Origin: Phycisphaerales bacterium
GTDB taxonomy: Bacteria; Planctomycetota; Phycisphaerae; Phycisphaerales; UBA1924
DNA: 64,000 nucleotides
Assembly: GCA_023382935.1 (NCBI GenBank)
Contig: JAHDXL010000008.1
Location: 62,001 to 126,000 of the forward strand
Direction of reading: 5' to 3'
Positions within the stretch are counted from its first letter, which is position 1; each line of letters starts with the position of its first letter. The notes under the pieces are model-generated. The model did no database searches and was not told where the DNA came from. It saw only the letters and a program-made list of their open reading frames with translations. The position numbers and the translations under genes were made by a program. Shown piece by piece: positions 3,266-34,096 of this stretch.

Positions 3266-3301
3266 TCTGCCTGTACTCCTTCAAGCCGTTGAGTTGTCCG
3301 A

Positions 3302-4018: not shown

Positions 4019-4025
4019 GCAGCGG

Positions 4026-4054
4026 AAGATACTACCGGACGTGCGGGCTGTCAA
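4026..4054 (-). promoter_or_regulatory. near-consensus sigma70-type promoter
   Basis: On the minus strand TTGACA (4054-4049) is followed after exactly 17 bases by TATCTT (4031-4026). The -10 box ends 7 bases before the first ATG of the pseudopilin gene, so initiation at the normal distance would start the transcript at or beside the start codon. This predicts leaderless translation from 4018, or use of 4012 or 4006. Confidence 0.55.
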
Positions 4055-4238
4055 GAGCGATATTCGGTGTCTGTTGAAGAATGTTCAGCGATCGTTGCCC
4101 ACGGTGGAATGAGTCGGACGTGGATCCTCGGAACGCTGGACGAAATTCCTAGGGAACCTGCCCGAAACTGATCGCCTCTCAGGTGGTCCGACGGCGGGTC
4201 ATTGCTGCTCGACTCCCATCAACCTTCCCGGAAGGAGT

Positions 4239-7479: not shown

Positions 7480-7536
7480 TCAAGCCCGGCAATGCGGGAT
7501 CGCACTCGACGTTGAAATGGGCGAGGAGGTTCGAGG

Positions 7537-8568: not shown

Positions 8569-8672
8569 TGAGAGAGGCGAATGTCTGAAATGAGCCCCGA
8601 CCGTCAGGGAGGGGTCGGACTGGGCCGGGTGACTGCTCCCGCTCGGTGGCGGCTCGTCAAAGCCGGTGCGGC

Positions 8673-9071
8673 TCAGGTTTGCGCCGCCATGCCGCACGAC
8701 GAGCAGAAGTTATCGTCCTCGTCGAGTTTCGCCCCGCAGTTAGAGCAGAAGGCCGGGCGGTGCTCGCCGGGCAGTGGTGGCCGGATCGGTGACGAACGGG
8801 GCGAGCGTCGGCTCGGGTCGAGCGGGTCAGGCTCCTGGCCCGGGCCGGTGATGTCATACACACTCATGCGATGACGTGCGAAGGCGTTGTAGCCGTGGAA
8901 CGCCGCCGAGCCGAGCGCGACGACGATGAAGATGATTCCGAAAAATGTGAAGAATGGTGGCGCTCCCATCGACCACGCAGTGGCGGTGAAGATCACGCCG
9001 AACAGCGCGGCCACCATGCCCATGAAGATCCCGGCCGCCGATGGTCCACGTCCTGGCTTGACGCTGTACAT
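8673..9071 (-). CDS. small membrane protein with C-terminal zinc ribbon
   Basis: A 132-residue protein with two adjacent hydrophobic helices (about residues 13-60, IFMGMVAALFGVIFTATAW and FFGIIFIVVALGSAAF) and a short cytoplasmic tail ending in a zinc ribbon, FCSNCGAKL ... FCSSCGMA (CxxC-x11-CxxC). The ATG at 9071 is preferred over the one at 9095 because AAGGGAG precedes 9071 at a proper distance and nothing similar precedes 9095. Such zinc-ribbon two-helix proteins are common in bacteria with no known function. It converges with the hydrolase gene, about 100 bp apart; that gap holds no clear terminator. Confidence 0.65.
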   Translation of the reverse strand: MYSVKPGRGPSAAGIFMGMVAALFGVIFTATAWSMGAPPFFTFFGIIFIVVALGSAAFHGYNAFARHRMSVYDITGPGQEPDPLDPSRRSPRSSPIRPPLPGEHRPAFCSNCGAKLDEDDNFCSSCGMAAQT

Positions 9072-9171
9072 CGCCCGATCTCCCTTGGCTGACATGGTAT
9101 TGGGGACCGGGCTGGGCTGCTTGCGAGAGCGGCGAGTCTGTCAGGAACAGTAGGTCGCGGCCTGTCCTCCG

Positions 9172-9260
9172 GGGGTTGGAAGCCCCTTCTTCAGCCGGGC
9201 GAGCAAGGCACGGCCTCCGGTTGGCGCGCGTGCCAGCAACGTCCCTCCTCGGACGTTGCT
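9172..9260 (-). other. cluster of three adjacent RNA hairpins in the 3' region of the TPR gene
   Basis: Three inverted repeats lie in a row: 9235-9260 (10-bp perfect stem AGCAACGTCC/GGACGTTGCT, loop of 6), 9207-9234 (stem GGCACG/CGTGCC with an inner GCC/GGC pair) and 9172-9186 (GGGG/CCCC around a 7-base loop). They begin about 65 bases after the stop of the TPR gene in its direction of transcription. No U-rich tail marks a classic terminator. The cluster may be a 3'-UTR structure, a small RNA or a dispersed intergenic repeat; the strand is inferred from the neighbour. Confidence 0.4.
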
Positions 9261-9325
9261 TCTCTTGGTCGACCGTCCGCGCCAGGCGCAGCAACCTTGA
9301 AGACAAGGTCCATGGCACGACACCC

Positions 9326-11014
9326 CTACTCGCCGTGTTCGGCCAAACTGCTGCAATAGCACGAAGCCACTGGGCGCACGTCGGCTCGCGCCCATGCTTG
9401 GTCGAGCATCGGGTCGAGTGAGGCCGCCTCGCCGATCTTGCCTTGTGCCTCCAGCGACTGCTGGAGCCCCAGCAGAGCCCAGCCGTTGTTGGCGTGTCGC
9501 TTGAGGTCTTCGCGATAGACCGCCTCGGCCTCGGCGGCGCGCCCGTCAGACAACAGCAAAGCCCCCAGCGCGTGCCGCACCGGCTGCATCCAGCCCGGTG
9601 GCTCGTCGTACACCAACTTGTCCTCAAGCGCGACGGCCTGGCGAAGCAGACTGAATGCCTCGGTGGAATGGCCGTCCTTGAAGGCGATTTCTCCCGCGGC
9701 CATGTTGCGTGCAATCCCGATCACTGCGGACGCCGGGTTGTTGCCCATGAACCAGGTATCGTCCAGTTGCGAAGCCATCTCGTCAAACTTCGCCAGTTCC
9801 TCCCTGGCCTCCTCGATGCGTTTCAGGTTCGCCAACGCCACCGCGCGCGCGTAGTGCCATTCGGCCCGGCTCAGCAGGCGGTAGTCGTCCGGTTCCGGCT
9901 CAGTGAGTACGTCCTGCCACTTGCCGAAGCGGATCAGAACGTGCAGCGTCGTGGGCATGAAGCCATCGGCGAATCCCACGTTCTCGCGGAGGAACTTCTC
10001 GGGAATGTCGCGCTCGATCTTGCGTGCGGCATCGAGCGCCGTTTCGTAGCGGCCCTCCATCATCGCGGCGTATGCAAGGAAGTGCACGTTGTGCAGGAAA
10101 TACAGGTTGTAGAAGTCCGGCGCCGGCGCGAGTTTGAAGTATGCTTCGTCGACCGCGATGGCGCGCGAGTTTGCATCGGCGGCCATTGCGTAACGACCCG
10201 TGCGGATGAAGATATGGCTGGGCATGTGCACCAGGTGCCCCGAGCCCGGCACCAGATCCACCAGCCGCTCGGCAGCGGGCAGGCCCTTTTCAGGCCAGGG
10301 CGAGGCCTCGATCGCGTGAATGTAGAAGTGGTTGGCGCCCGGATGCAGGGGCGTATGCGACAGCGTGTGATCCAGGACGTCGAGGATGTCGAGCGTTCGA
10401 CCCTTGGGCTCGCCCATGTGCGTCCACAGATCCCACGGCTGAAGGTTCATCAGCGATTCGGCATAGAGCGCTCCGACGTCAGGATCATTGGGGAACTGCT
10501 CGTATGCCTCGCCCATCGCCTCCGCGTAGGACTCGTCGAGCGGGCGGCGGACTTCGGGCGCCGGCCACGTGTATCGCCGCGCCACCGCGCGGATCAGCGC
10601 CGCCTCAACCGGACTGGCCTTATCGAGACGCTGGAGCGCCTCCTGCGCGGCATCAAAGGCTCGCTTCGACTGCTCTTCTCCCATCTGCGGGTTGTTGATG
10701 TGCAGCCCGTGCGCGTACGCCACGCCCCACCAAGCCATGGCGCAGTCTGGGTCGAGCGACGCGGCATGCTGGAAAGAACGGATCGCTTCGTCGTGATTGA
10801 ACCCGTAGAGCAACTGAATGCCCTGATCGAAGGCCTGCTGTGCCTCGGGCACGCTGGTCGTCACAACCCGGTGATACCCCCCGAAGCCGGGGTAGAACGC
10901 GGGAGGCACGGATTCGGAAACCTGGGCCGCGGCGGGCAGGGCAGCCCACAGCCAAGGCCCTGAGAGCCCAGCCGAGAGCGACAGGGCGAGGGAAATGCGT
11001 GGGACGAATCTCAT
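9326..11014 (-). CDS. secreted tetratricopeptide-repeat protein
   Basis: A 562-residue protein. The start MRFVPRISLALSLSAGLSGP leads into a signal peptide ending near AAAQ; GAGGAG lies 6 bases upstream of the ATG at 11014, which is why this start is chosen over open frame further upstream. The body is a chain of helical pairs: QGIQLLYGFNHDEAIRSFQ, then AASLDPDCAMAWWGVAYAHG, a middle block HPGANHFYIHAIEASPWPEKG with LVPGSGHLVHMPSHIFIRTG, and C-terminal repeats with GRAAEAEAVYREDLKRHANN and WALLGLQQSLEAQGK. This matches a widespread exported TPR family found in planctomycetes and others whose function is not known. The conserved His cluster in the middle (HFYIHAIE, HLVHMPSHIF) could bind metal. 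It is divergent from vgrG across about 190 bp. Confidence 0.75.
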   Translation of the reverse strand: MRFVPRISLALSLSAGLSGPWLWAALPAAAQVSESVPPAFYPGFGGYHRVVTTSVPEAQQAFDQGIQLLYGFNHDEAIRSFQHAASLDPDCAMAWWGVAYAHGLHINNPQMGEEQSKRAFDAAQEALQRLDKASPVEAALIRAVARRYTWPAPEVRRPLDESYAEAMGEAYEQFPNDPDVGALYAESLMNLQPWDLWTHMGEPKGRTLDILDVLDHTLSHTPLHPGANHFYIHAIEASPWPEKGLPAAERLVDLVPGSGHLVHMPSHIFIRTGRYAMAADANSRAIAVDEAYFKLAPAPDFYNLYFLHNVHFLAYAAMMEGRYETALDAARKIERDIPEKFLRENVGFADGFMPTTLHVLIRFGKWQDVLTEPEPDDYRLLSRAEWHYARAVALANLKRIEEAREELAKFDEMASQLDDTWFMGNNPASAVIGIARNMAAGEIAFKDGHSTEAFSLLRQAVALEDKLVYDEPPGWMQPVRHALGALLLSDGRAAEAEAVYREDLKRHANNGWALLGLQQSLEAQGKIGEAASLDPMLDQAWARADVRPVASCYCSSLAEHGE

Positions 11015-19872: not shown

Positions 19873-21366
19873 TCAAGCCCATGAAGCGTGCAGGCTCCGC
19901 CCGTTGATCGCACACAACCGAGGTACGCGCACGGCATCGCGGTGCTGTACGCTGAGCACGGGGGTCAGCCCGCGCTCGAGCAGTCTCTGCGATGCCGTAT
20001 CGGTCAGCCAGGCCTCAGCGCACGGCACGGCGGCGCGATCAGGCCCCGAGCCGGGCACATAGACCGGCAGCCCCTCCACATCCCCGCCCGCCTGCGGGTC
20101 GAGCGTCCAGCCTTCTTCCACAAACGCACGCCCGAGCAGCAGCGTGCAGTGCATGGCCGCGTTCGTCCACAGCAGACTCTCGTGTGCGCCGGCTCCCTCC
20201 AGTTCCTCGAACGCGAAGGTATCGACCGGCTCCGTGCGCGCGCCATACGGCAGCCTGCCGAGCACCCTGGGCAGTGCCAGACCGACAGACGACGCTTCGC
20301 CCAGTGAACGCACGAGTTGCCATGCGGCGGCTTCGTCGGGTGAAAGGGGTGTTGTCCAGTCTTCCGGCCGCGGGTGGCGTGCCAGCGAGTCGGTTCCCGC
20401 CAGTCGGTCGTGTGCGCCGGCCAGCAGCACTGCGCCCGACGCATGGGCGCACACCGCCAGCCCGCCGAGCAACTGGGCATCGGAGGCACTGGCGCCGAAG
20501 CGTTCGAGCAGGCAGATCACGCTCCACGGATGCCCGCCCGGTGTTGATCTCGGACGCTCAGTCAGCAGCGCGTGCAACCCCCGGGCCCCGTTGCTGAACA
20601 CGTCATGCTCCAGTTCAGCGCGACTGACGTCAAGCACGAACACCTGGAGTTCCTCGCGCGTCTCCAGCCCCGTGACCAGCAGGTGCAGCCCGCGCCAGTT
20701 TCCCTCCAGCGTCTGAAACGCCGGGTCGTGCAGCACTGAGCGCATCTGCCCGGCGATGGTCTGGTCGACCAGCGCCACCAGTTCACCCAGATCGGGCGCA
20801 CCCGACGGCACAATGTGCGGGCGGATCAGTTCCCGGATCAACGCCTCCACGTGCCCCGCCGCGGCGGTGGGGGCGGCGCCGGTGCTCCCGCTCAACAGCG
20901 CTTCAAACTCGCTGCGCGGCGTGGCCGGGGCTTCCATCGGCTTGGGTTCGACCGTCGAAGCGGGCTTGGTCGTCGCCCAGGCTCTCACTTCAGCGGCCGC
21001 CGCGGCACTCGTCGCCGGGTTGGTCAAGCGCGCACGCAGATCGCGCAGCGCAGTAAACAGTTCCACGCGGCGGAAAATCTGGTCGGGGTGGAAATGTTCG
21101 AGTTCCTGAAAACCGATGCCGAAGGCCCCATCCTGCCCCGCCCGCAGCCCCAGCCGCGTCTTCCACGAGGCCATCAGCGTCTCAAAATTGTCGATGTCGA
21201 CCTTGGAGGGCGTCCGAACGTCGAGCGGCTCAATCTGTCCACGATTGCCGCGCCCCGAGAAATCGCCTGCCACCAGGATGCGGAAGGGCGCCTCAGGCTC
21301 CGGGCGAGGGGCGCGCCCCCCCGACACGGTGTTGCGGAAGATGTCGAACGTGAAGTTCATGGACAT
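19873..21366 (-). CDS. type VI secretion contractile sheath protein, TssB-TssC-like fusion
   Basis: A 497-residue protein. Residues about 25-100 (FRILVAGDFSGRGNRGQIEP, VDIDNFETLMASWKTRL) resemble the small sheath subunit TssB, in which DNF is conserved. Residues about 190-480 match the large subunit TssC: LVDQTIAGQMRSVLHDPAFQ then TLEGNWRGLHLLV, VFVLDVSRAELEHDV, GLALPRVLGRLPYGART and LLWTNAAMHCTLLLGRAFVE. A low-complexity linker (residues about 110-180) joins the halves. In normal systems these are two proteins that together build the contractile sheath; here one polypeptide holds both. No other sheath, baseplate, Hcp or ClpV gene is adjacent, and vgrG lies about 7 kb away. The start at 21366 or 21360 cannot be separated. 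Confidence 0.8.
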   Translation of the reverse strand: MSMNFTFDIFRNTVSGGRAPRPEPEAPFRILVAGDFSGRGNRGQIEPLDVRTPSKVDIDNFETLMASWKTRLGLRAGQDGAFGIGFQELEHFHPDQIFRRVELFTALRDLRARLTNPATSAAAAAEVRAWATTKPASTVEPKPMEAPATPRSEFEALLSGSTGAAPTAAAGHVEALIRELIRPHIVPSGAPDLGELVALVDQTIAGQMRSVLHDPAFQTLEGNWRGLHLLVTGLETREELQVFVLDVSRAELEHDVFSNGARGLHALLTERPRSTPGGHPWSVICLLERFGASASDAQLLGGLAVCAHASGAVLLAGAHDRLAGTDSLARHPRPEDWTTPLSPDEAAAWQLVRSLGEASSVGLALPRVLGRLPYGARTEPVDTFAFEELEGAGAHESLLWTNAAMHCTLLLGRAFVEEGWTLDPQAGGDVEGLPVYVPGSGPDRAAVPCAEAWLTDTASQRLLERGLTPVLSVQHRDAVRVPRLCAINGRSLHASWA

Positions 21367-22049: not shown

Positions 22050-22289
22050 GACTGACTCTATCTCCACTGGCTTGCAATGCCGAGCCTTGGCAGACCGATT
22101 GACGCGACCGGGGAAACGCTCAAAGCGTCCGATAACGTTCGACTCGGGGGCCATTCGACAAGCCCGCGCAACTTCTGTCCTCGGTTGGTAGGATCTTCTA
22201 CGGATTGTCGTTGATTGTGATTCGGTCGCGGGTTGGTTTGGTGCAATCTGTGCTGCCTGACCGGCGTCGGGAAATCAGGGGAAGGATCC

Positions 22290-24716
22290 ATGCTCAACAA
22301 GTTTCACCTCGCGCTGCTGCTGGCCGCCAGCACTCTCTTCACCTTGCAGGTCGCCTCGGCGCAACCGGGCCGGGGCCCGCGCGGCGGCGGGGGGGGCGAT
22401 GCGGCCGCCAAGAGCGACGGACCCAAGTCCTACGACGAGGTCATCAGGGACTCGGCCATCACCTCCAAGGGCCTGATCGTCACGCACCTTCAGGACGGCA
22501 AACTCTACTACGAGATTCCCGCAGATGTCTTCAACCGCGACCTTCTCTGGGTCACGCAGATCAGCCAGACCGGGCAGGGGCGCAGTTACGCCGGCATGCC
22601 CGTGGCCGACCTGGTCGTGCGATGGGAGATGCGCGGCGAAGAAAAGGTGCTGCTTCGCGAAGTGCAGTACCGCGTGCGCGCCGACACCGACGATTCGATT
22701 CGCCTGGCCGTCGAAGCCAGCAGCGTCATGCCCATCATCGAAGCGTTTGATATTGCCTGCTGGGGCAAGGACAAGCGCCCGGTGATCGAGGTGACCAAGT
22801 TGTTCACCAACGACGTGCCTCAGTGGACCGCCACGGGAGAACTGGGTGCGCAGAGCCTCGACTCGGCGCGCACGTTCATCGATCAGGTCAAGGCCTTCCC
22901 GGAGAACGTCAACACCAAGGTGCTCGCGACGTACAAGGTGGGTCCGCCCGAAGGTCGCGGCGGAGGCGGCGGGGGCGGAGCAGCCACTCGCCCGCGCACC
23001 GGCGAAGTGACGGCCGTCATCGCCCACTCGATGGTCAAACTCCCCGACAAGCCGATGAAGCCGCGCGTGCAGGACGAGCGTGTCGGGTTCTTCAGCGTGG
23101 GCTTCACCGATTACGCGGATATGTCGCGTCACCAGGCCGAGCCGGTGCGCTACATCACGCGCTGGCGCCTGGAAAAGCAGGATCCTGCCGCCGAGGTTTC
23201 CGACCCGGTCAAACCAATCGTGTTCTACGTGGCGCGCGAGGTGCCTGACTTCCTCAAGCCCTACGTCAAGCAGGGCATCGAGGACTGGCGTCCGGCCTTC
23301 GAGGCCGCGGGCTTCAGCAACGCCATCATTGGGAAGTTCGCCCCCAGCGTGGATGAAGACCCGGACTGGGATCCGGAAGACGCCCGCATCAGCAGCATCC
23401 GCTGGCTGCCGGCCGACATCAAGAACGCCTTCGGCCCGCATGTGCATGACCCGCGCACGGGCGAGATTCTCGAAGCCGACGTGCGCATGTATCACAACGT
23501 GATGACGCTGGTGCGTGACTGGTACTTTGTGCAGGCCTCGGCCTGCGATCCGCGGGCCCAGAAGTTGCCCATGCCCAACGACTTGATGGGCGAACTGGTT
23601 CGCTTCGTCGTGGCGCACGAGGTCGGGCACAGCCTCGGCTTCCCGCACAACTTCAAGGCCTCGAACGCGTACTCGGTCAAGCAGTTGCGAGATCCCGAGT
23701 GGACGAAGAAGAACGGGACGGCTCCATCGATCATGGACTACGCCCGGTTCAACTACGTCGCGCAGCCGGGCGACGGGGCCGCGCTGCTGCCGGGGGTGGG
23801 GCCTTACGACCTGTTCGCGACCGAGTGGGGATACCGCCAGTTTGCCGAGGACGCCGACGAGAAGGCCGAACTGGAGACTCTGGTCAAAAAGCAGATCGGT
23901 GAGCCAATGTTCCGCTTCGGTGGAGGCTTCGGTGACCCCACCAGTCAGACCGAGGACTTGGCCAGCGATGCGGTCGAGGCAACGACGCTGGGCATGGCCA
24001 ACCTGCGGCGCATCGCGGGCTTCATCGTCAACGCCAGTTGCAACCAGGGCGAAGATTACGACCTGCTCGACAACATGTACAACGAACTGTGGGGGCAGTG
24101 GAACCGCGAAGTCGGGCATGTGGCCAATCTCGTCGCCGGCGTGCAGCAGATCAACCTCTTCTTCGGCGATGCCGACAAGCGGTACTTCCCGGTCGAGCCG
24201 CAGCGCCAGCGCCAAGCCGTGAAGTTCCTCGTCGAAAACGTGCTTGGCGAGCCCGACCCGGCGATGGTGAACGAGGACATCGTGTCCCGCCTGACGCCCA
24301 CCGGCGTGGCCGAGCGGGTCGGAGCCGCTCAAAACCGCGTGCTGCAGTCGCTGCTGAACGCCGGGCGGATCAACCGCATGGCCGAACTGGCGCAACGACA
24401 CGCTGAGGCGTACACGCTGCCCGAGTTCATGTCCGATCTGCGCAGGGGCATCTTCGCCGAGTTCGGACAGGGCGGATCGAACGAGGTGAGCCTGTACCGG
24501 CGCAATCTGCAGCGGAACTACGTCGATCTGCTCGCCGGGGCCGTGGCCGCGGGAGGCGCCGACTCAGACTTCCCGGCGATGGCGCGCGGAGAACTGAATG
24601 AAATTGCGTCGCTGTTGCGCATGCGAGCCCCGTCATTGACCCAGGGCCTCACGGCCCTGCACGCCGCCGACCTGCGGGCGCGGATCGAGAAGGCACTGGA
24701 TACCGACGGCGACTGA
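22290..24716 (+). CDS. secreted zinc-dependent metalloprotease (DUF5117/DUF5118 family)
   Basis: An 808-residue protein with a signal peptide (MLNKFHLALLLAASTLFTLQ, cleavage near ASAQ). A Gly-rich spacer precedes the family's N-terminal region (ITSKGLIVTHLQDGKLYYEI). The catalytic motif VVAHEVGHSLGFPHNFKAS is a metzincin-type HExxHxxGxxH (first His about 443), with a later Met-turn SIMDYARFNYV. This is the standard layout of the large exported zinc metalloproteases common in Planctomycetota and Bacteroidota. It would degrade proteins or peptides outside the cytoplasm. GGGGAAGG precedes the ATG; the frame is open a little upstream but without a better start. It converges on the IorB-synthetase fusion gene with about 110 bp between. 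Confidence 0.88.
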   Translation: MLNKFHLALLLAASTLFTLQVASAQPGRGPRGGGGGDAAAKSDGPKSYDEVIRDSAITSKGLIVTHLQDGKLYYEIPADVFNRDLLWVTQISQTGQGRSYAGMPVADLVVRWEMRGEEKVLLREVQYRVRADTDDSIRLAVEASSVMPIIEAFDIACWGKDKRPVIEVTKLFTNDVPQWTATGELGAQSLDSARTFIDQVKAFPENVNTKVLATYKVGPPEGRGGGGGGGAATRPRTGEVTAVIAHSMVKLPDKPMKPRVQDERVGFFSVGFTDYADMSRHQAEPVRYITRWRLEKQDPAAEVSDPVKPIVFYVAREVPDFLKPYVKQGIEDWRPAFEAAGFSNAIIGKFAPSVDEDPDWDPEDARISSIRWLPADIKNAFGPHVHDPRTGEILEADVRMYHNVMTLVRDWYFVQASACDPRAQKLPMPNDLMGELVRFVVAHEVGHSLGFPHNFKASNAYSVKQLRDPEWTKKNGTAPSIMDYARFNYVAQPGDGAALLPGVGPYDLFATEWGYRQFAEDADEKAELETLVKKQIGEPMFRFGGGFGDPTSQTEDLASDAVEATTLGMANLRRIAGFIVNASCNQGEDYDLLDNMYNELWGQWNREVGHVANLVAGVQQINLFFGDADKRYFPVEPQRQRQAVKFLVENVLGEPDPAMVNEDIVSRLTPTGVAERVGAAQNRVLQSLLNAGRINRMAELAQRHAEAYTLPEFMSDLRRGIFAEFGQGGSNEVSLYRRNLQRNYVDLLAGAVAAGGADSDFPAMARGELNEIASLLRMRAPSLTQGLTALHAADLRARIEKALDTDGD

Positions 24717-24825: not shown

Positions 24826-27801
24826 CTACCGCGCCACGCGGTGGCACAGGTATCGTCCCAGCGCCTTCATCGCCTCGTCGGCCGACCGGAACACCGGAAT
24901 TGAAGTCTCGCGCAACTTCCGAACCAGTCCTTCATAGGCCGCGCCCGCATCGACCACCGCCACGATGGGCTTGCTGAACTCGCCAGCCAGCGTGCCGAGC
25001 ACGTCGGCAAGTGTGCGTCCTCGTGCGATCTCGTCGCCCGTGGTCGCCAGCGAAGGCGTGAGCGGAACCGCCGATACCAGCAGCGCGTCGACCTCTCCCG
25101 ATGCGAGCATCACGCGGGCAGCCGCCTCATATGCGTCTTCCCCGGCCATCGGCGTCAGGTCGAGCGGATTGCGAGCGTTCACCAGCCCGCCCAGCCGCTG
25201 TTCACTCAGCACCTGTGCCAGTTGCGAGCGTGTCGCTTCGCTCAGCCCGGGCAGTTCGATCTCATAGCCCGGTCCGCGCACGCGGTCGCCCATGCCGACG
25301 GTCTCGAAACCGGCGTTGGAAATGGCTCCCAGCCGCCGCCCGCCCGCCGGTCGATCGTGCAGCAGGCAGCCCAGTTCGAGCAGTTGTTCAAACTCGGCGA
25401 AGGACTCGGCCACCAGCGCGCCCGCGCTGGTCGCGCCCGCTTCGGCGATGTCGTAATCGCCCGCGACCGAGGCCGTGTGTCCCGCCGCCGCATCGCGACC
25501 TTGCTCGGTGCGACCGGCCTTGTAAAACACGATGGTACGCCCCCGCTGCGAGAGTCTGCGCACCGCGTGCAGCAGGTCGAGCCCGTCCAGGTCGGCAAAA
25601 CCCTCGACGTACACGCCGATGGTGTGAATGTCGTCTCGCTCTCCGACAGCCCGCACCATGTCGGCGACGGTCAGGTCAGCCTGGTTGCCGATCGACAGCG
25701 CCACTGCCGGATCAAGCGTCGGATTGCGGCTCATGCGGCTGACGATGAACGCCCCGCTCTGGGAGACCAGCGCCACGCCGCGAGCGGGCAGGCCTCGTCG
25801 CTTATCAATCTTGTCATCGGGAATGAAGAAAGTGTCGTAGCGACCGGGACGCGACATCACTCCCAGGCAGTTGGGCCCGAGAAACACCGGGCCGCCGTCC
25901 TCACGCTCCCTCCCGCGCTCGATCGCGGCCCGGACCTGTGCAAGGATGCCGCCGCTGCCCTCCGTCTCGCCGACTCCCCCCGGAATCACGATGGCCGAAT
26001 GCACCTTGCCAGAGTCCACGCACTCGTTGACAATCGCGGGCAACTGCTCGGCCGCCGCCGCGATGACCAGCAGATCGGCGGGCTCGGGCAGCGCGCCAAT
26101 GGACTCCACGCAGCGCACGCCGTCGATTTCCGTTTCGCCCGGCTTGATGACGCGCACGCGATGGCGATCAAATCCGCATGCCAGAACGTTGTTCAGGATG
26201 ATCCTCCCGAAGTTCCTCCCGCGCGACGACACGCCCAGTACCGCCATCGACTTGGGCTCGATCAGTCGAGCGACCTTCTCGATCGGTCGCGGCCTGCGCC
26301 GTTTGGCGGCCGTCGCCAGCCGTCCGCGACCGTCCAGCGGAACCAGACACTGGTGCCGGAAGGCGAACGGGTTGACCTCGAGTTCGGCCACGTCGGGCCC
26401 GACCGCCCCGCGATCGACGCAGAAGCGCCGCGCCAGCGCGACAAACGCCCGGAAGCAGCGCAGCAACTCGCCGTCGGATACCGACCGCTGGTGTCCGCGG
26501 GCCTGGCCAGAGACGGTCTCATACGCGGCGGTGCGGCGAAACAGGTCGAAAAACTCCTCGGCCGACAGTTCCGTCGCGACTCCCTTGGCCACGGCGGCGC
26601 CCTGACGCATCACGCCGGCCAGATACTCCATGTCCACTCCGCCCAGCCCGGCCGCGACGATCGGCCCGAACTCGCGCGTCGCGCGGATGCCCACGAACAT
26701 CTCCTCGCCCAGCCCGCGGTGGGCTCGCTCGACGAACTCAACAGCGAGCACGCCGTAGACCTTCGCCCCGCGCTTGCGGTGCAGGTCGATCAGCGCGTCA
26801 ATCTCGCGCCGCACGGTGGCCGGCTCCTTGTCGCAAAACACCACGCCGCGTGCCTCGCTCTTGTGCACCACGTCGGGCGACACGATCTTGAGCACGATCC
26901 GCTCGCCGGGAAATCGCGCCAGTGACTCGTCGGAAATCAGATCGTCCACCCCCAGAAACACATGCTGCGGCGGTGAAATCGCGCCCACCAGTTGCACGAT
27001 CTGGTACACCTCGTGCTCGAACAACTGCTTGCGCCCGTCCTCGTACACGTCCCAGAGCAGCCGCTCGACTGCGTGCGACTCGGCGCCTGAAAGTTGGTCT
27101 TCCAGCCCACGGACGTCAAAGACCGGGCCTTCGATGGCGGAATCACCTTCCAGTTGCTCCACGCTCAATCCATCGACCCAGTGCCGCACCTCGCGGCTGG
27201 TGCCCCCGCGCTCCAGCCCGCGCAGATACGCTTCGGCGGCGCGACGCCCGTAGCGCAGTGCCCGGCGGTTCGACTCGGCCACGCGCTCGCCCTTGCCCGC
27301 GAACATCTCCGCCACCGCCTGTTCGATCTGCTCCATCTCCAGCCCGAGCACGGTCGAGGCCGCGCCCAGCAGCACCACGTTGCCCGATCGCGCCGACCCG
27401 GCGCTCCTGGCCAGCCGTTCCGCATCGATGACGATGTGACGCGGGTAGCGCGCGATCCGGTCAATCACCTGCTCCACCGCCGGATAGTTGCCGATGTTCA
27501 GGAATGCGTTGGCTGAAGAAATGATCGTGCCGTCGGCCCGCAGCATGTGCACGTACCGCAGCGACTCGAGCGGCTCGGTGGCGATGAGCACGTCAGCCTT
27601 GCCCGCGGGAATCAGGTCGGAGTGCAGCGGTTCGTCGCCGATGCGCAGGTGGCTTTGCACCGCTCCGCCGCGCTGGCTCATCCCGTGCACTTCACTCTGT
27701 TTGACGTGCATCCCGCGCGACACGGCCGCTCCCGAAATCGCCCTAGCGATCGTCAGGATGCCCTGTCCGCCCACGCCTGCGAGGATGATGTTCTGCTGCA
27801 C
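24826..27801 (-). CDS. indolepyruvate ferredoxin oxidoreductase beta subunit fused to ADP-forming acyl-CoA synthetase
   Basis: A 991-residue, three-part protein. Residues about 1-195 are IorB: NIILAGVGGQGILTIARAIS, VKQSEVHGMSQRGGAVQSHL and VLLGAASTVLGLE. Residues about 245-500 are the ATP-grasp beta part of an ADP-forming acyl-CoA synthetase (VLKIVSPDVVHKSEARGVVF, ELEVNPFAF). Residues about 515-991 are the alpha part: CoA-binding Rossmann fold (IEPKSMAVLGVSSRGRNFGR), GPNCLGVMSRPGRYDTFF, VALVSQSGAFIVSRMSRNPT and the phospho-His motif AAGHTASVAGDY (His about 775). All motifs look intact. IOR oxidises aryl pyruvates to aryl-acetyl-CoA; the synthetase converts acyl-CoA, ADP and phosphate to acid and ATP, so one chain could join both steps. 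It starts with GTG after GAGGAAGG and lies 43 bases downstream of iorA. Confidence 0.85.
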   Translation of the reverse strand: MQQNIILAGVGGQGILTIARAISGAAVSRGMHVKQSEVHGMSQRGGAVQSHLRIGDEPLHSDLIPAGKADVLIATEPLESLRYVHMLRADGTIISSANAFLNIGNYPAVEQVIDRIARYPRHIVIDAERLARSAGSARSGNVVLLGAASTVLGLEMEQIEQAVAEMFAGKGERVAESNRRALRYGRRAAEAYLRGLERGGTSREVRHWVDGLSVEQLEGDSAIEGPVFDVRGLEDQLSGAESHAVERLLWDVYEDGRKQLFEHEVYQIVQLVGAISPPQHVFLGVDDLISDESLARFPGERIVLKIVSPDVVHKSEARGVVFCDKEPATVRREIDALIDLHRKRGAKVYGVLAVEFVERAHRGLGEEMFVGIRATREFGPIVAAGLGGVDMEYLAGVMRQGAAVAKGVATELSAEEFFDLFRRTAAYETVSGQARGHQRSVSDGELLRCFRAFVALARRFCVDRGAVGPDVAELEVNPFAFRHQCLVPLDGRGRLATAAKRRRPRPIEKVARLIEPKSMAVLGVSSRGRNFGRIILNNVLACGFDRHRVRVIKPGETEIDGVRCVESIGALPEPADLLVIAAAAEQLPAIVNECVDSGKVHSAIVIPGGVGETEGSGGILAQVRAAIERGREREDGGPVFLGPNCLGVMSRPGRYDTFFIPDDKIDKRRGLPARGVALVSQSGAFIVSRMSRNPTLDPAVALSIGNQADLTVADMVRAVGERDDIHTIGVYVEGFADLDGLDLLHAVRRLSQRGRTIVFYKAGRTEQGRDAAAGHTASVAGDYDIAEAGATSAGALVAESFAEFEQLLELGCLLHDRPAGGRRLGAISNAGFETVGMGDRVRGPGYEIELPGLSEATRSQLAQVLSEQRLGGLVNARNPLDLTPMAGEDAYEAAARVMLASGEVDALLVSAVPLTPSLATTGDEIARGRTLADVLGTLAGEFSKPIVAVVDAGAAYEGLVRKLRETSIPVFRSADEAMKALGRYLCHRVAR

Positions 27802-27844
27802 GCGCGTTCCTTCCTCAAGTCGCGTCCGATCTCGACGCCGTCGC

Positions 27845-29512
27845 TCAGGTCGTGTTGATCGTCACGCATCCGCACACGCCGCCGGCCCCGCACGAGCCGC
27901 CCGATTCCGCCGCCGGGCCCTTGCGCTTGACGTGAATACACGCCCGCTGCGCCACGATCACGCTCAATCCACGGTGGTTGATCTCGCGCCGGATCAGGTG
28001 TGTGTTCGCCTCGTGGTTCTTCGGAAGTGGCTCGATCACATGCAGGTGATCGACGCGCACACCCAGCCCGCGCACCGCCGCCACCAGCGCCTCGCCGCAC
28101 AGCAAAGTGTCCTGCGCCCCCGTCATCCCCACCGTCGAGTTGTCGAGGATGATCACCGTCATGTTGGCGTCGGCGTGCGCCGCCCCGAGCAGGGCCGTCA
28201 TCCCCGAATGCGCAAACGTCGAGTCTCCGATCGTGCATAGCACCGGGTGCGCCCCCGCCTGCGCCGCCCCGTGCGCCATCGAGATCGAAGCCCCCATGTC
28301 CACGCACGTATGCACCGCGCGGAACGGCGGCGCCACCCCCAGCGCATAGCACCCGATGTCGCTGAACATGTGTGCCTCAGGGTATCCTGCGGCCGCCTCC
28401 ACCATCGCACGGAAACTGTCCGCGTGCGGACACCCGCGACACAGTTGCGGCGGCCGGTCGGCCAGCCCCGCCAGCGCACCAATGGCGCCGGGCTCGGCGC
28501 CCACGCCCAGCATCGCCGCCACGCTGTCGGGCGTCAGTTCACCGGCCAGCGGAAGGTCACCCGTCAGTTTGCCCCGGATCGTCTTGCCCGGCACACCCAT
28601 CAACCCGTTGAGCCGGCGCTCAATGAGCGGATACCCCTCCTCGATCACCAGCACTTCCTCGCAATGTCCCACGAGCGTGCGAATGAGCCCGCCCGGCAGC
28701 GGATAGTGCCCGATGTGCAGCCTCGATTCGCCGCTGCGCCCGCCCAGCGCCTCTTCCACGTAGTTGCGCGCGATGCCCGAGGTGATGATTCCGCGCCGGC
28801 CTCGCAGCGTCAGTTGATTGTGCCTTGACTGCTCGCTGTCGCTCTCCAGTCGTGGCTGAAGTTCGAGCAGGTGGGCAAAACGCCGCCGCGCATTGCCCGG
28901 CACCAGCACCCAGTCCGAAGGCGTCGGCCTGGCATAGGCGCGCACGCGCCCTTCGCCCCGTTCGCTCTCGCCGCGCCGCTGCACCGTCGCGCGGCTGTGG
29001 CACAGCCGCGTCACCATGCGCACCATCACAGGAAGTCCAACGGCCTCGGAGTACGCGAAGGCTTCGAATACCTGGTCGTAGGCCTCCTGCTGGCTGCCCG
29101 GCTCAAACAGCGGCAACTGCGCAAACTCCTGGTAAAAGCGCGTGTCCTGCTCGTTCTGCGACGAGTGCATCCCTGGGTCGTCGCCCACCACCAGCACCAG
29201 CCCCGCGTTCACGCCCGTGATGGCCGAACTCATGAACGCATCGGCCGCCACGTTCAGCCCCACGTGCTTCATGCTCACCATCGCCCGCCGCCCCGCGTAC
29301 GACATGCCCAGCGCCTCTTCGTACGCCACCTTCTCGTTGGCCGACCAGCGTGTGCTGATGCCGCACCCCGGGCCCATTCGCTGAGCCTGTGACTCGACAT
29401 ACTCGAAAATCTCCGTCGCCGGCGTGCCGGGGTAGGAGAACGCCCCACCGATTCCCGCGTCGATGGCCCCCTGCGCGGCCGCCTCGTCCCCCAGAAGCAA
29501 CTCGCGGCTCAC
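27845..29512 (-). CDS. iorA: indolepyruvate ferredoxin oxidoreductase, alpha subunit, without ferredoxin domain
   Basis: A 555-residue protein (GTG start at 29512, preceded by GAGGTG; the normal family start SRELLLGDEAAAQGAIDAG fits). It has the pyrimidine and PP domains of IorA: GGAFSYPGTPATEIFEYVES, VGLNVAADAFMSSAITG, and the thiamine-diphosphate site GDSTFAHSGMTALL with DNSTVGMTGAQ. A Cys motif CRGCPHAD in the middle is also typical. Family members normally end in a two-[4Fe-4S] ferredoxin domain of about 60 residues; here the chain stops after CGAGGVCGCVTINTT with only four scattered cysteines. The electron path is therefore unclear. It precedes and is almost surely co-transcribed with the IorB-synthetase fusion. 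Confidence 0.88.
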   Translation of the reverse strand: MSRELLLGDEAAAQGAIDAGIGGAFSYPGTPATEIFEYVESQAQRMGPGCGISTRWSANEKVAYEEALGMSYAGRRAMVSMKHVGLNVAADAFMSSAITGVNAGLVLVVGDDPGMHSSQNEQDTRFYQEFAQLPLFEPGSQQEAYDQVFEAFAYSEAVGLPVMVRMVTRLCHSRATVQRRGESERGEGRVRAYARPTPSDWVLVPGNARRRFAHLLELQPRLESDSEQSRHNQLTLRGRRGIITSGIARNYVEEALGGRSGESRLHIGHYPLPGGLIRTLVGHCEEVLVIEEGYPLIERRLNGLMGVPGKTIRGKLTGDLPLAGELTPDSVAAMLGVGAEPGAIGALAGLADRPPQLCRGCPHADSFRAMVEAAAGYPEAHMFSDIGCYALGVAPPFRAVHTCVDMGASISMAHGAAQAGAHPVLCTIGDSTFAHSGMTALLGAAHADANMTVIILDNSTVGMTGAQDTLLCGEALVAAVRGLGVRVDHLHVIEPLPKNHEANTHLIRREINHRGLSVIVAQRACIHVKRKGPAAESGGSCGAGGVCGCVTINTT

Positions 29513-30168: not shown

Positions 30169-33100
30169 TCACCCCTCCTCCGACACTTCCTGTTCCACCC
30201 CACCCGCTTGGGGCTCAGAATCTTCAGATTCTTGCTCCGGCCCGGGCTTCTCGCCTCCCAGCATGGTCCGGATCATGAAGTCGTACATCAGCCGCGTGTA
30301 GTGCGAGCCGTACAGCCCGTGACGGCGTCCGGGGTACAGGAACATCTCGAACTGCTTGCCCTTCTCCACCAGCGCGTCGATGAAGCGCACCGAGTTCTGC
30401 GGGTGCACGTTGTCGTCGATCATGCCGTGCAGCAGCAGCAGCCGTCCATGCAACTTCTCGGCCGCGGCCACCACGCTGGTATTCGCGTAGCCCTCGGGGT
30501 TGTCCTGGGGCGTGAGCATGTAGCGTTCTGTGTAGATCGTGTCATAGTCGCGCCAGTCGGTGGGCGGCGCGCCGGCGATGCCCGCGCTGAACAGCGTCGA
30601 ATGCGTCATCGCATAGGCTGTCATGAACCCGCCATAACTGTGCCCCGACATGCCGACCCGGCTGGTGTCGGCCCACGGGTGCGCCGTCACCCAGCGGATC
30701 ATCTCCTCGATGTCCTGCATCTCGCGGATGCCGAACTGCCTGTAGCACGTCCAAGCCGACTGTGCGCCCTTGCCGCTGGCCGGGTACGGGTCGCCGTAGA
30801 AGATGACGATGCCCTGCGTGGCCAGCAACTGATCTCCCGCACGCCCGCCGCCCCAGGAGTCGGAAACGGTGGGGGCGTGCGGGCCCGCGTAGGTCTTGAA
30901 CCAAATTGGGTACTTGCCCTCGGGCTTGAAATCGGGCGGATACAGCAGTGCCCCCTCGAGTGTCACACCCTTCTCTGACGGAATGCTCACCGGCTCGATG
31001 CGCCCCAGCGACCACTCCTCCAGTTCATACACCGGGTTCGTGTCAATCATCCGAACCAGCGTGCCGTCGCTCTCGCGCAGCGCCACCTGCGTCGGCGTGC
31101 CGTACGAAGACCACGAGTCGATGAACATGGAGCCCCCCGTGCTGATCTGCGTGCGGTGGCTGCCCGGTTCGGGGGTCAGGCGCGTCAGGTCGCTGCCGTC
31201 AAACCTGACGCGGTAGAAGTTGCTCGCGATCGGCGAATCACGCATGCCCGAGAAATAGATCCATCCGTTCGTTTCGTCGACGTGATCGAGCGAGCGCACT
31301 TCCCACTCGCCCTCGGTGATGCGCCTTTGCAGCGAGCCCTTCTTCTCGAAGTGGTAGATGTGCTTCCAGCCGTCGCGCTCCGAGAGCAAAAGGAAACTTC
31401 CGTCCTTCAGTTCGGTGGGGTCGCCCAGCGACTCAACCCATGCGCCGGTGGTCTCGCGGAAGAGTCTGTCCGGCTTGCCGCCGCCGGAGCCGACCTCCAG
31501 CAGGTCGAGCCAGGTCTGCGCGCGATTCTGCACGCCCAGCCGCAGTTTGCCCGTTTTCTCCGACCAGCCCACCCACGAAATCAGGTGTCCCCCGACGTCG
31601 TAGTCCGAGAGATCCACCTCGCGCGGTGCCTCGCCCGCCACCGACGCGATGAACAACCGCACGTACGGGTTCGGTTCGCCTGGGCGCGGATAGCGCTCCA
31701 CCTCCACACGCCCCTCATTCCGAAGCACGTCGTGCACCAGTGTGTACTGCGGCACCATCGAAGCGTCGGTCTTGAAGTACGCGATGGACCGGCCGTCCGG
31801 ACTCCACCAATAGGCCTTCCAGTCGCGATTGTAGAGTTCCTCGAAGTAGACCCAGGTGTTCTTGCCGTGCCGCAGGGCGTCGGTGCCGCCGGTGGTGATG
31901 GCCCGCTCCACGCCCGTGCTCACGTCGACCACGTACAGGTCGTTCTCACGCACGAACGCGGCGAACTTCCCGTCGGGCGAAAGTGAGCTGAGATCTTCGA
32001 CGCCGGGCGAAGAGGTCAGCCGCCGCGCGTTGCCGCCGTCGGCGTCGGCGTAATACAAGTCACCCGCGTGCTCGAACACTGCGCCCTTCGTCTGCCCGGC
32101 CCGCCCGAAGTGCGCCCGCGCGATGCCCCGCGCCTGTCCGGCGTCCACCGTCGTCAGTTGGCTCAACTTCGCGACGATCGGATCCAAGTCAACCTCGTAC
32201 GGTTGTGTCCGCCCGGTGCGAGCATGCACCAGCAGCGTCTGGTTGTCCTTGCGCTGCACGAACCGCTCGTCATCAACCCACCGCAACCCGCCGACCGGCG
32301 AGCCGTTCAGGTTCACACGCCCGCCCGCATGAACGTCTTCGTAGGTCAGTTTCCGCCCGGTCTTGCGATCCTCCGGGAGCGGACGCGCCGCGCGCAGCGT
32401 CATGGGCGATCGCAGCGGCACCCGCAGCACCGGAAACGCGGCCTCCGACTGCATCGCGTCTGGGAAAAAGTTCCACGTCACCAGCCCGTCGCCCGACCGT
32501 GCCTCGAGCAGATAGCACGCCAGCGTGCCCAGTTTCTGCCCGCTCCGCACCACGTACCACCCCGGCTCGAATCGCCGCATCGACGATTCGACCCGCGTCT
32601 CCAACTCCCGCACGATCGAATGCCCCTCGTAGGCGCGCGAGGACATCGCCGCCTTCAGCACACGCTCGCCCTCCACGTCCAGGTCAATGTCCTCCCGCAG
32701 CACCTCCACCTCGATCCCGTGCCGCTGAAGCATCTCGCACAGCCACGTCATCTCGCCGGGAAAGACATACGCATACGGTCGCTGCACCTCGAGCGCCGGC
32801 ACGAAGTTGTTGTACAGGTCCACCTCGTACGCGCGCTCCTCGCCCAGCACCACCGGCTGGCCTTCTTCCCGCGTTTCCTCGTAGCCCAGGACCGTGAACT
32901 TGCGATCAAACGCCTCGACCTTCGAACGAATCGCCACCCGGTCCGTTGTCGAAGGATTCCGCCCCGCGTCAATCACCCGACGGTCGGCCTCGCGCGTCAG
33001 GCGACGGATCTCCTCGCGGTGTTTGCCGGCGTAGTTCAGCACCGCTTCACAGAACGCCTTCGTCGCCAGCACTCGATCCTTGAACGGGGCGTACGAGTAC

Positions 33101-33999
33101 GCCTCGCTCAGGATTGTCACCCGGTTGCGCAGGCTGAAGTACCCCTCGCCATAGCGCGGCTCATCGGGATAGGTCTCCCAGCGCGTGTGGTCACGCCCAC
33201 GATCGCCGAAGTACCCGTAGAAGAATGCGTGATATCCGCTCTCCTTCTCAAATGCCTCGTCCACCGCCGGAAGCATCGTGTCACGCACATACTCGACGAT
33301 CGCCTTGTCGCACGCCGGGTTCTTCGGACCCTGATACGTGATCAGGTGCCGGTGGTGCGACCCGTTGGTCGTGTGCGTGTCAATGAAGATCGTCGGATCC
33401 CACTCGTTGGCCCACTTGACCAGCGCCCGCGTCTCCGGGGCGTCCAACTTCACGTAGTCGCGGTTGAGGTCGAATCCGTCTGCGTTCTCCCGCGCGCCCA
33501 TCTTCTCCGGCCCGTTCTGCCCTGGGCGGTTGTCCGGGGCCACCTTCTCGTTCCCGTCCACGTTGTAGTTGGGCACCATGCACAGCACGAGTTGCTCGAG
33601 CAGCGGACTCTTTTCCCCCAGGCATAGGTCGCGAGCCATCATCAGCAGCGCTTCTTTTCCACACGTCTCGCCCGCGTGAATGTTGCCGATCAACAGCACC
33701 ACCATGCGCTCGCCGACCTGGTCGACCTTGCTCACCGGCGGGTCGGCCACAATCGCCATCTGGATCTCGCGCCCTTCCTTGCTCTTACCGATGCTTGTCA
33801 GCCGGATGCGGTCCGAGTGCTTCGTCAGCGCTTCCAGAAACCCCCGCACGTCGGCCTCACGCCCGGTCTGCGCAAAGTCCGTCGCCTCCGCTACCGTCAC
33901 CGGCGCCTGAAACCCGGCGCACGCTTCGGCCTCCTGCCCGAACGCCTGCCGAAGCACCACGACCAGAACCGCCAGCACCACCAATCGCACTCTGCTCAT
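30169..33999 (-). CDS. secreted peptidase fusion: M14 carboxypeptidase plus S9 dipeptidyl peptidase IV-like
   Basis: A 1276-residue protein with a signal peptide (MSRVRLVVLAVLVVVLRQAF). Residues about 45-370 are a zinc carboxypeptidase of family M14: GNIHAGETCGKEALL gives zinc ligands His108 and Glu111, FIDTHTTNGSHH gives His209, and ILSEAYSY the catalytic Glu299. From about residue 560 to the end it is a DPP IV-type S9 peptidase: a beta-propeller (AYWWSPDGRSIAYFKTDASM) and an alpha/beta hydrolase with VGMSGHSYGGFMTAYAM (Ser), MIDDNVHPQ (Asp) and GRRHGLYGS (His). A region of about 190 residues joins them. Both active sites look complete. GGAG precedes the ATG at 33999. The two activities together could trim peptides from both ends in the periplasm or outside. 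Confidence 0.87.
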   Translation of the reverse strand: MSRVRLVVLAVLVVVLRQAFGQEAEACAGFQAPVTVAEATDFAQTGREADVRGFLEALTKHSDRIRLTSIGKSKEGREIQMAIVADPPVSKVDQVGERMVVLLIGNIHAGETCGKEALLMMARDLCLGEKSPLLEQLVLCMVPNYNVDGNEKVAPDNRPGQNGPEKMGARENADGFDLNRDYVKLDAPETRALVKWANEWDPTIFIDTHTTNGSHHRHLITYQGPKNPACDKAIVEYVRDTMLPAVDEAFEKESGYHAFFYGYFGDRGRDHTRWETYPDEPRYGEGYFSLRNRVTILSEAYSYAPFKDRVLATKAFCEAVLNYAGKHREEIRRLTREADRRVIDAGRNPSTTDRVAIRSKVEAFDRKFTVLGYEETREEGQPVVLGEERAYEVDLYNNFVPALEVQRPYAYVFPGEMTWLCEMLQRHGIEVEVLREDIDLDVEGERVLKAAMSSRAYEGHSIVRELETRVESSMRRFEPGWYVVRSGQKLGTLACYLLEARSGDGLVTWNFFPDAMQSEAAFPVLRVPLRSPMTLRAARPLPEDRKTGRKLTYEDVHAGGRVNLNGSPVGGLRWVDDERFVQRKDNQTLLVHARTGRTQPYEVDLDPIVAKLSQLTTVDAGQARGIARAHFGRAGQTKGAVFEHAGDLYYADADGGNARRLTSSPGVEDLSSLSPDGKFAAFVRENDLYVVDVSTGVERAITTGGTDALRHGKNTWVYFEELYNRDWKAYWWSPDGRSIAYFKTDASMVPQYTLVHDVLRNEGRVEVERYPRPGEPNPYVRLFIASVAGEAPREVDLSDYDVGGHLISWVGWSEKTGKLRLGVQNRAQTWLDLLEVGSGGGKPDRLFRETTGAWVESLGDPTELKDGSFLLLSERDGWKHIYHFEKKGSLQRRITEGEWEVRSLDHVDETNGWIYFSGMRDSPIASNFYRVRFDGSDLTRLTPEPGSHRTQISTGGSMFIDSWSSYGTPTQVALRESDGTLVRMIDTNPVYELEEWSLGRIEPVSIPSEKGVTLEGALLYPPDFKPEGKYPIWFKTYAGPHAPTVSDSWGGGRAGDQLLATQGIVIFYGDPYPASGKGAQSAWTCYRQFGIREMQDIEEMIRWVTAHPWADTSRVGMSGHSYGGFMTAYAMTHSTLFSAGIAGAPPTDWRDYDTIYTERYMLTPQDNPEGYANTSVVAAAEKLHGRLLLLHGMIDDNVHPQNSVRFIDALVEKGKQFEMFLYPGRRHGLYGSHYTRLMYDFMIRTMLGGEKPGPEQESEDSEPQAGGVEQEVSEEG

Positions 34000-34096
34000 G
34001 ACTTCTCCATCCGACCCGCGCCCGTCGCGAGCAGGCATTTGAGCACATCCGACTTCCCGGAACAACCCGCCACCTTCAGCCCGTCAATCATCCCCC

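What the first reader, a model, noticed from the sequence alone, without database searches (positions are those of the whole stretch)
24826..29512. Two-gene module joining indolepyruvate oxidation to ATP formation, with IorB fused to an ADP-forming acyl-CoA synthetase
Seen: the 991-residue protein carries, in order, an IorB domain, an ATP-grasp (ACD beta) domain and CoA-binding/ligase (ACD alpha) domains with intact phospho-His (about 775) and ATP-grasp motifs; iorA is 43 bases upstream. Known: in Pyrococcus and Thermococcus, IOR makes aryl-acetyl-CoA and a separate ADP-forming acyl-CoA synthetase converts it to acid plus ATP. Inferred: here the two steps are physically linked, which may channel aryl-acetyl-CoA and give substrate-level ATP from aromatic amino acids. 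I am not aware of this fusion being described.
Basis: partly seen in the sequence, partly recalled or inferred. Interest (0 to 1): 0.72.

Follow-up and report, generated by a model that had tools for sequence, protein, structure and literature searches.

The report
Oxidoreductase subunit fused to ATP-making ligase
In a group of uncultured planctomycete bacteria, one protein joins the CoA-handling part of a 2-oxoacid-oxidising enzyme to the enzyme that normally cashes in its CoA product for ATP, so two consecutive energy-yielding steps that are separate proteins elsewhere sit on one chain.

Summary
A single 991-codon ORF (24826-27801, minus) encodes an IorB domain (CoA-binding gamma/domain III of 2-oxoacid:ferredoxin oxidoreductases) followed by a complete ADP-forming acyl-CoA synthetase. 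A short iorA lies 43 bases upstream. It is not an assembly error: the fusion occurs in 26 distinct sequences, 23 of them in the window's class (Phycisphaerae by inference), with invariant catalytic residues. The joint diverges in sequence (24% mean identity) but holds its length (62-67 residues). The ACD tree suggests one fusion, loss of the IorB part in two genomes, and horizontal transfer into this genus; the IorB tree is too poorly resolved to confirm this. Unfused forms show intermediate stages: three-gene operons in Aminicenantes, Acidobacteriota and Spirochaetes; a GTGA overlap; same-frame genes 6 bases apart. Neighbouring IOR and ADP-forming ligase genes are in print; the fusion was not found in the papers searched. 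Most likely role: oxidising arylpyruvates (or other 2-oxoacids) to acyl-CoA, then acid plus ATP, on one complex. Substrate, direction and channelling are inferred, not shown.

The parts
24826..27801 (-). iorB-acd fusion gene, 991 aa
   Evidence: single ORF; Pfam and NCBIfam domains; 26 distinct homologous fusions including this one
27217..27801 (-). IorB domain, residues 1-195 (gamma/domain III type; GxGGQG at 9-14)
   Evidence: POR 11-186; NF005324 2-192, 252 bits against cut-off 222; GGQG 11-14 identical in 26 of 26
27031..27216 (-). joint, residues 196-257: IorB tail helix, variable linker about 216-240, lead-in to ATP-grasp
   Evidence: linker mean pairwise identity 24%; length from 192 to 257 is 62-67 residues in 26 fusions; pLDDT under 50 at 229-234
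26326..27048 (-). ATP-grasp (ACD beta, subdomains 3-4), residues 252-492; H313, E473, E475, N477, P478
   Evidence: ATP-grasp_5 1.6e-22; residues identical in 26 of 26
25855..26253 (-). CoA-binding subdomain 1, residues 517-649
   Evidence: CoA_binding_2 5.6e-15
25375..25782 (-). ligase subdomain 2, residues 674-809, with phospho-His H775
   Evidence: Succ_CoA_lig 7.8e-31; H775 aligns with the His of 4xyl_A and 9y43_A; loop 764-781 has pLDDT under 50
24829..25347 (-). subdomain 5 (second flavodoxin-like), residues 819-991
   Evidence: alignments to 9y43_A and 4xym_A run through residue 991; no separate Pfam hit
27845..29512 (-). iorA, short form, 555 aa: POR_N and TPP domains, four invariant Cys (C358, C361, C388, C525), no 2x[4Fe-4S] ferredoxin domain
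   Evidence: (TIGR03336 2-537 of 595)

Best explanation
A two-gene oxidative module. IorA with the IorB domain should form a minimal 2-oxoacid:ferredoxin oxidoreductase of the short-IorA kind. The 2-oxoacid, most likely an arylpyruvate from Phe, Tyr or Trp, is decarboxylated on TPP. Two electrons leave through the single proximal [4Fe-4S] cluster to a separate ferredoxin, and CoA held by IorB takes the acyl group. The ADP-forming synthetase tethered to that same CoA-binding domain then takes acyl-CoA and Pi, phosphorylates H775 on its mobile loop, carries the phosphate to ADP in the ATP-grasp domain and releases the free acid and ATP. Shown by sequence: domains, order, intact catalytic residues, conservation, one-chain coding. 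Inferred: substrate, direction, complex formation, and the advantage of proximity (channelling or fixed 1:1 stoichiometry).
For: Domains and cut-offs. Colinear match to a solved ADP-forming synthetase of the same domain order: 9y43, residues 242-991, Z 31.7 over 674 residues. Phospho-His loop of low model confidence (764-781), as expected of the swinging loop described in PMC11494057 (passages). IorB corresponds to OFOR domain III, whose P-loop binds CoA in PFOR (PMC8091585 passage). An OFOR without a ferredoxin domain can use external ferredoxin (StOFOR, PMC5020499 passages). Four invariant Cys in IorA, 9 of 9. Linker length conserved while sequence diverges. iorA upstream in 26 of 26 fused loci; no other neighbour family is in more than 3 of 31 regions, once ORFs antisense to the module are set aside. 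Unfused relatives have the same three genes in one operon. G000 has prephenate dehydratase and TrpA, so it does not appear to need arylacetates to make Phe or Trp. The only other ACD-like protein that this query finds in G000 is a Pat-type alpha-beta-GNAT protein. Short IorA is also the Bacteroides form (L108, 530 aa), and B. thetaiotaomicron IOR is reported to act in phenylalanine to phenylacetate conversion (PMC13285125 discussion).
Against: IorA scores under the TIGR03336 equivalog cut-off, and IorB passes NF005324 but not the older TIGR03334. ACD-type ligases are reversible, and the best structural match, the Nitrosopumilus 3-hydroxypropionyl-CoA synthetase, is an enzyme of a carbon-fixation cycle. 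G130 and G643 keep the ACD with no IorB domain, and G320 has ACD and IorAB on different contigs, so linkage is not essential to ACD. Aerobic respiration genes (COX1) are present in 20 of 21 genomes tested, so ATP from this step may be minor. No substrate-pocket evidence.
Confidence: 0.6

Rival explanations
1. The same complex works in reverse: the synthetase spends ATP to activate arylacetate (or another acid) and the IOR half carboxylates it reductively to the 2-oxoacid for amino acid synthesis or salvage.
For: ACDs are reversible; IORs of methanogens and, by proposal, Bacteroides run this way (PMC13285125 discussion); the closest solved ACD is a ligase of carbon fixation. Four of 14 genomes tested have no PDT hit and 2 of 14 no TrpA hit (G089 and G349 lack both), so salvage could matter there.
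Against: G000, G001 and G002 all have PDT and TrpA hits. In the Bacteroides case proposed as biosynthetic the ligase is AMP-forming; this one is ADP-forming. Peptidase genes flank the module in G000 and G002.
Confidence: 0.2
2. The substrate is not aromatic: the module oxidises other 2-oxoacids (branched-chain or pyruvate-like), and IOR is only the nearest name.
For: IorA is below the equivalog cut-off; OFOR specificity is hard to read from sequence (HpdDEFG uses hydroxyphenylpyruvate although nearest to VORs, PMC13285125).
Against: IorB passes NF005324; the shared short-IorA type includes Bacteroides, whose IOR is linked to phenylacetate. G000 has four other POR-domain proteins that could take other 2-oxoacids.
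Confidence: 0.25
3. The fusion is a neutral operon merger: it only fixes expression ratio, with no catalytic coupling between the halves.
For: Unfused relatives already have the genes 6 bases apart in one frame (G051) or overlapping by GTGA (G038), so a small change could merge them. Two lineages lost the IorB half.
Against: Retention in 26 diverged sequences (the 25 others 50-87% identical to P0001), linker length held to 62-67 residues at 24% identity, and apparent horizontal spread as a unit.
Confidence: 0.3
4. Assembly or sequencing artefact at the joint.
For: None found.
Against: Same joint in 26 distinct sequences from separate assemblies.
Confidence: 0.01

Closest known systems
Thermococcales IOR plus separate ADP-forming acyl-CoA synthetase (peptide fermentation pathway)
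   Same: Same two chemical steps in series (recalled; P. furiosus IOR is cited in PMC13285125).
   Different: There the two enzymes are separate and IorA carries a ferredoxin domain (both recalled). Here IorB and ACD are one chain and IorA is short.
Peptostreptococcales IOR/OFOR clusters with ADP-forming ligase or Pta/Ack (PMC13285125, sections 12-14 read)
   Same: Gene-level pairing of 2-oxoacid oxidoreductases, arylpyruvate type included, with an ADP-forming ligase; one such C. difficile ligase uses PA, HPA and IA.
   Different: Separate proteins; no such fusion is mentioned in the sections and passages read.
iorA-iorB-acd three-gene operons in Aminicenantes, Acidobacteriota and Spirochaetes (L081-L085)
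   Same: Same gene order, same beta-alpha ACD (35-38% identity), short IorA.
   Different: Not fused.
Nitrosopumilus 3-hydroxypropionyl-CoA synthetase (ADP-forming), 9y43
   Same: Same domain order (ATP-grasp then CoA-binding/ligase), Z 31.7, 23% identity.
   Different: No IorB domain; belongs to a carbon-fixation cycle (abstract of PMC11494057).
Sulfolobus tokodaii StOFOR1/2
   Same: Minimal OFOR with one [4Fe-4S] and no ferredoxin domain (PMC5020499 passages).
   Different: Domain III is fused to domains I-II there, not to a ligase.

Membership tests
Indolepyruvate oxidoreductase (IorAB) | IorB over a curated IorB cut-off | tested here: met
   NF005324 252.4 bits, cut-off 222; but TIGR03334 135.6 bits is under its 205.8 cut-off
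Indolepyruvate oxidoreductase (IorAB) | IorA over TIGR03336 cut-off | tested here: not met
   484.8 bits, cut-off 650.9; match 2-537 of 595, ferredoxin domain missing
Indolepyruvate oxidoreductase (IorAB) | 2x[4Fe-4S] ferredoxin domain at IorA C-terminus (recalled as typical of archaeal IorA) | tested here: not met
   no CxxCxxCxxxC in the iorA frame of 26 of 26 fused loci; also absent from the Bacteroidota IorA found upstream of iorB
Indolepyruvate oxidoreductase (IorAB) | TPP site and proximal-cluster Cys | tested here: met
   GDS...N and C358, C361, C388, C525 invariant in 9 of 9; ligand role of these Cys is inferred
Indolepyruvate oxidoreductase (IorAB) | activity on arylpyruvates | not testable with these tools
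   needs enzyme assay
ADP-forming (NDP-forming) acyl-CoA synthetase superfamily | ATP-grasp plus CoA-binding plus two flavodoxin-like ligase subdomains | tested here: met
   (subdomain 5 by structure and phmmer alignment, not by Pfam)
ADP-forming (NDP-forming) acyl-CoA synthetase superfamily | phospho-His on mobile loop | tested here: met
   H775 in 25 of 25 rows that reach it; aligned with 4xyl_A and 9y43_A; loop pLDDT under 50
ADP-forming acetate-CoA ligase (TIGR02717 and named equivalogs) | over the equivalog cut-off | tested here: not met
   TIGR02717 215.7 against 567 bits; NF045492, NF045493 and NF045494 also far under: a member of the superfamily, not of these named enzymes
Pat-type protein acetyltransferase | alpha-beta order plus GNAT domain | tested here: not met
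   no GNAT hit in P0001 and beta-alpha order; the other ACD-like protein found in G000 is of that type

The most novel reading that the evidence does not exclude
Substrate-level phosphorylation is built physically into a 2-oxoacid:ferredoxin oxidoreductase: the ligase is tethered to the domain that holds CoA, at a fixed reach, so acyl-CoA and returning CoA pass between the two active sites without leaving the complex, making one machine from 2-oxoacid, ADP and Pi to acid, CO2, reduced ferredoxin and ATP.
Probability: 0.35. Interest if true: 0.75.

Novelty: new variant of a known kind. Interest (0 to 1): 0.52.

Why it matters
The two steps are the core of amino acid fermentation in many anaerobes, and whether acyl-CoA is handed over directly is, as far as I know, open. 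A natural fusion to the CoA-binding domain, with a length-conserved linker and unfused relatives at several stages, gives a direct test: cut the linker and measure coupling. It also extends this ATP-yielding route to Phycisphaerae and gives a simple two-gene cassette that appears to move between lineages.

Tried and rejected
Assembly error: rejected. Chance ORF merger: rejected by conservation. Split copies as real fissions: G310 and G257 are contig ends (G310's two contigs end at the joint), so they were not counted as unfused; G257 still reads from IorB into ACD. A conserved wider operon: not found (31 regions; the two other widely shared ORF families are antisense to the module, 79 of 80 and 26 of 26 ORFs; the remaining families are in at most 3 regions). 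Long opposite-strand ORFs in this GC-rich DNA were ignored. IorA model (pLDDT 74.8, 9 rows) matched OFOR alpha chains over about 390-400 columns, among many TPP decarboxylases, and adds little. The structure re-alignment did not list an IorB-like chain; its rows are filled by the ligase part. By sequence, IorB matches 9bt4_E, 2raa_A and 3on3_A. Papers: (10 of 10 searches, open-licence PMC only). Searches returned none; the rest returned lists (20 of 65 shown), and no listed title or abstract start describes the fusion. Seen: PMC13285125 (passages and sections 12-14); PMC5020499, PMC11494057, PMC8091585 and PMC13156950 (passages only).

Rows dropped: the ACD tree left out duplicate loci and rows starting after residue 300 or covering under 500 residues (so L053, L056, L058, L073, L076 and alpha-beta paralogues). 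The IorB tree kept one in four of the IorB rows without ACD. Both trees are quick searches with SH-aLRT only.
Full report
The observation. The window lies in G000, a 3.72 Mb assembly in 35 contigs. ORF 24826-27801 (minus) encodes 991 residues with, in order, POR/IorB, ATP-grasp_5, CoA_binding_2 and Succ_CoA_lig. iorA (555 aa) ends 43 bases upstream. The IorB part passes an IorB cut-off (NF005324) but not TIGR03334. The ACD part is a complete superfamily member in ATP-grasp-first order, matching 9y43 over residues 242-991 with Z 31.7. The model of the whole chain has mean pLDDT 84.6. Its only two segments of three or more residues under 50 are inside the linker (229-234) and the phospho-His loop (764-781).

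How common it is. Same genus: 3 of 3 genomes; 0 of the other 34 members of family f1 searched. Class sample: 27 of 298 genomes hold this ACD subfamily, best match 46% identity or more. Of these, 20 (the own genome included) have the fusion in one ORF over residues 1-3 to 988-991; G257 reads from IorB into ACD to a contig end; G310 breaks at a contig end at the joint; and 5 (G130, G320, G284, G230, G188) show ACD without a fused IorB, of which G284 and G188 are contig fragments and G230 has a broken frame. Phylum sample: 15 of 392 have a match at E up to 1e-60, of which 3 are fused (G000, G349, G512). L079 and L080 are identical in the ACD part to G316 and G210; G316 is in the window's class and L079's record is titled Phycisphaerae bacterium, hence the class name used here. 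After removing duplicates, 26 distinct fused sequences remain, one of them cut by a contig end: 23 in the window's class, 2 in another class of the phylum (G349, G512), and L078 (Planctomycetota, class not known). Overlap between the class and phylum samples was not removed from the per-call counts.

Residues and linker. GGQG 11-14, H39, M41, R44-G46, K305, H313, K314, E473, E475, N477, P478 and N706 are identical in 26 of 26; E733, G774, H775, T776 and D782 in 25 of 25 rows that reach them. Mean pairwise identity is 68% in IorB 1-100, 54% in 101-195, 45% in 196-215, 24% in 216-240, 32% in 241-256 and 56-66% in the four large ACD blocks (257-985). Length from residue 192 to 257 is 62-67 in all 26. 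By contrast, the tail beyond residue 991 runs from 0 to more than 30 residues in 12 aligned fusions. A free-sequence, near-fixed-length joint fits a tether under selection, though no formal test was made and inner segments are generally more constrained than tails.

IorA. The matched model stops at 537 of 595, and no CxxCxxCxxxC motif occurs in the iorA frame of 26 of 26 fused loci; among the loci in which one search found an upstream IorA only L075 has one. Four Cys (C358, C361, C388, C525) are invariant in 9 of 9, the number expected for one proximal [4Fe-4S] cluster (ligand role inferred). StOFOR is a solved precedent for an OFOR without ferredoxin domain that uses an external ferredoxin (PMC5020499 passages). 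Short IorA is usual in the Bacteroidota loci fetched, so it is a subgroup trait, not part of the fusion.

Origin. In the ACD tree (49 rows, 47 different, quick, SH-aLRT only) the 27 fused rows and three non-fused rows form one group (99). The three are L052 (G310, contig end), L054 (G130) and L064 (G643). G130 and G643 have no iorA or iorB in the 16-18 kb read; a distant copy is not excluded, though G130 gave no IorB match at E up to 1e-30. Unfused L057 (90) and L055 (99) branch just outside. This favours one fusion and two later losses. The IorB tree puts the fused rows, the unfused G038/G051 pair and G320's IorB on one side (99), poorly resolved inside: there the fused state needs 3 changes, at least 2 forced by starred branches, because the unfused G320 IorB (a long branch) sits with the fused G125 (96). 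So G320 may be a secondary split, and the single origin rests on the ACD tree. The window's genus groups with families f22, f46 and f57 (98 for 17 rows), not with its own family f1, whose 34 other searched members lack the gene; 0 of 7 f1 relatives tested has any POR domain, while G000, G001 and G002 have 5, 3 and 4. Horizontal gain is the simplest reading. Stages towards fusion are visible: iorA-iorB-acd operons (L081-L085); GTGA overlap of iorB and acd in G038; iorA-iorB fused in G051 with acd starting 6 bases after the stop in the same frame.

Function. IorB is the gamma subunit/domain III type, and in PFOR a P-loop of domain III binds CoA (PMC8091585 passage citing the Moorella structure). 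The ligase is thus attached to the part of the oxidoreductase that should hold CoA. The ACD mechanism with a swinging phospho-His loop is described in PMC11494057 (passages). Direction: an ADP-forming ligase and a genome with prephenate dehydratase and TrpA favour oxidation; reversibility, and a best structural match from a carbon-fixation cycle, keep the reverse open, as do the 4 of 14 genomes without a PDT hit. COX1 is present in 20 of 21 genomes, so these cells probably respire and may use the module when oxygen is short (inference). The gene context in G000 and G002 includes a protein with Peptidase_M14, DPPIV_N and Peptidase_S9 domains, and in all three genus members a Met-zincin, which fits peptide use but is not shared outside the genus in the regions compared.

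What is known. IOR-cluster genes near ADP-forming ligases are in print for Peptostreptococcales, with a C. difficile ligase (beside Cd3c, an oxidoreductase outside the IOR cluster) active on PA, HPA and IA (PMC13285125, sections 12-14). In 77 loci (L081-L157) an ADP-type ligase lies somewhere in the locus in 7 and an AMP-type motif in 10 (28 of the 77 loci are not over 9 kb). The fusion itself was not found in ten searches of an open-licence library. It may be listed in domain databases not available here.

Verdict. A real, conserved fusion of two known enzymes that act in series, probably of single origin: a new variant of a known kind. The physical coupling is shown at sequence level; substrate, direction and channelling are not.

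Noticed in passing
window 30169-34065 (-): 1298-aa protein with Peptidase_M14, DPPIV_N and Peptidase_S9 domains on one chain; homologue beside the module in G002.
   Followed up: partly
window 19873-21366 (-): 497-aa protein with a T6SS_VipA match (24-120) and a VipB match (196-478): contractile sheath small and large parts apparently on one chain; homologue in G002.
   Followed up: no
L028 (G051), 1761-4307 (+): A separate fusion, IorA with IorB in 848 aa, with acd 6 bases downstream in the same frame.
   Followed up: partly
L158 (G130) 8277-10592 (-); L159 (G643) 7260-9866 (-): ACDs nested inside the fused clade but lacking the IorB domain; no iorA or iorB in the stretch read. Their acyl-CoA source is unknown.
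   Followed up: partly
G000 contigs C3, C4, C6, C7: Four further POR-domain proteins in G000 while 0 of 7 family relatives tested has any: this genus seems to have gained several 2-oxoacid oxidoreductases.
   Followed up: partly
window 22233-24716 (+): Met-zincin (DUF5117/DUF4953) convergent with the module, present beside it in all three genus members.
   Followed up: no
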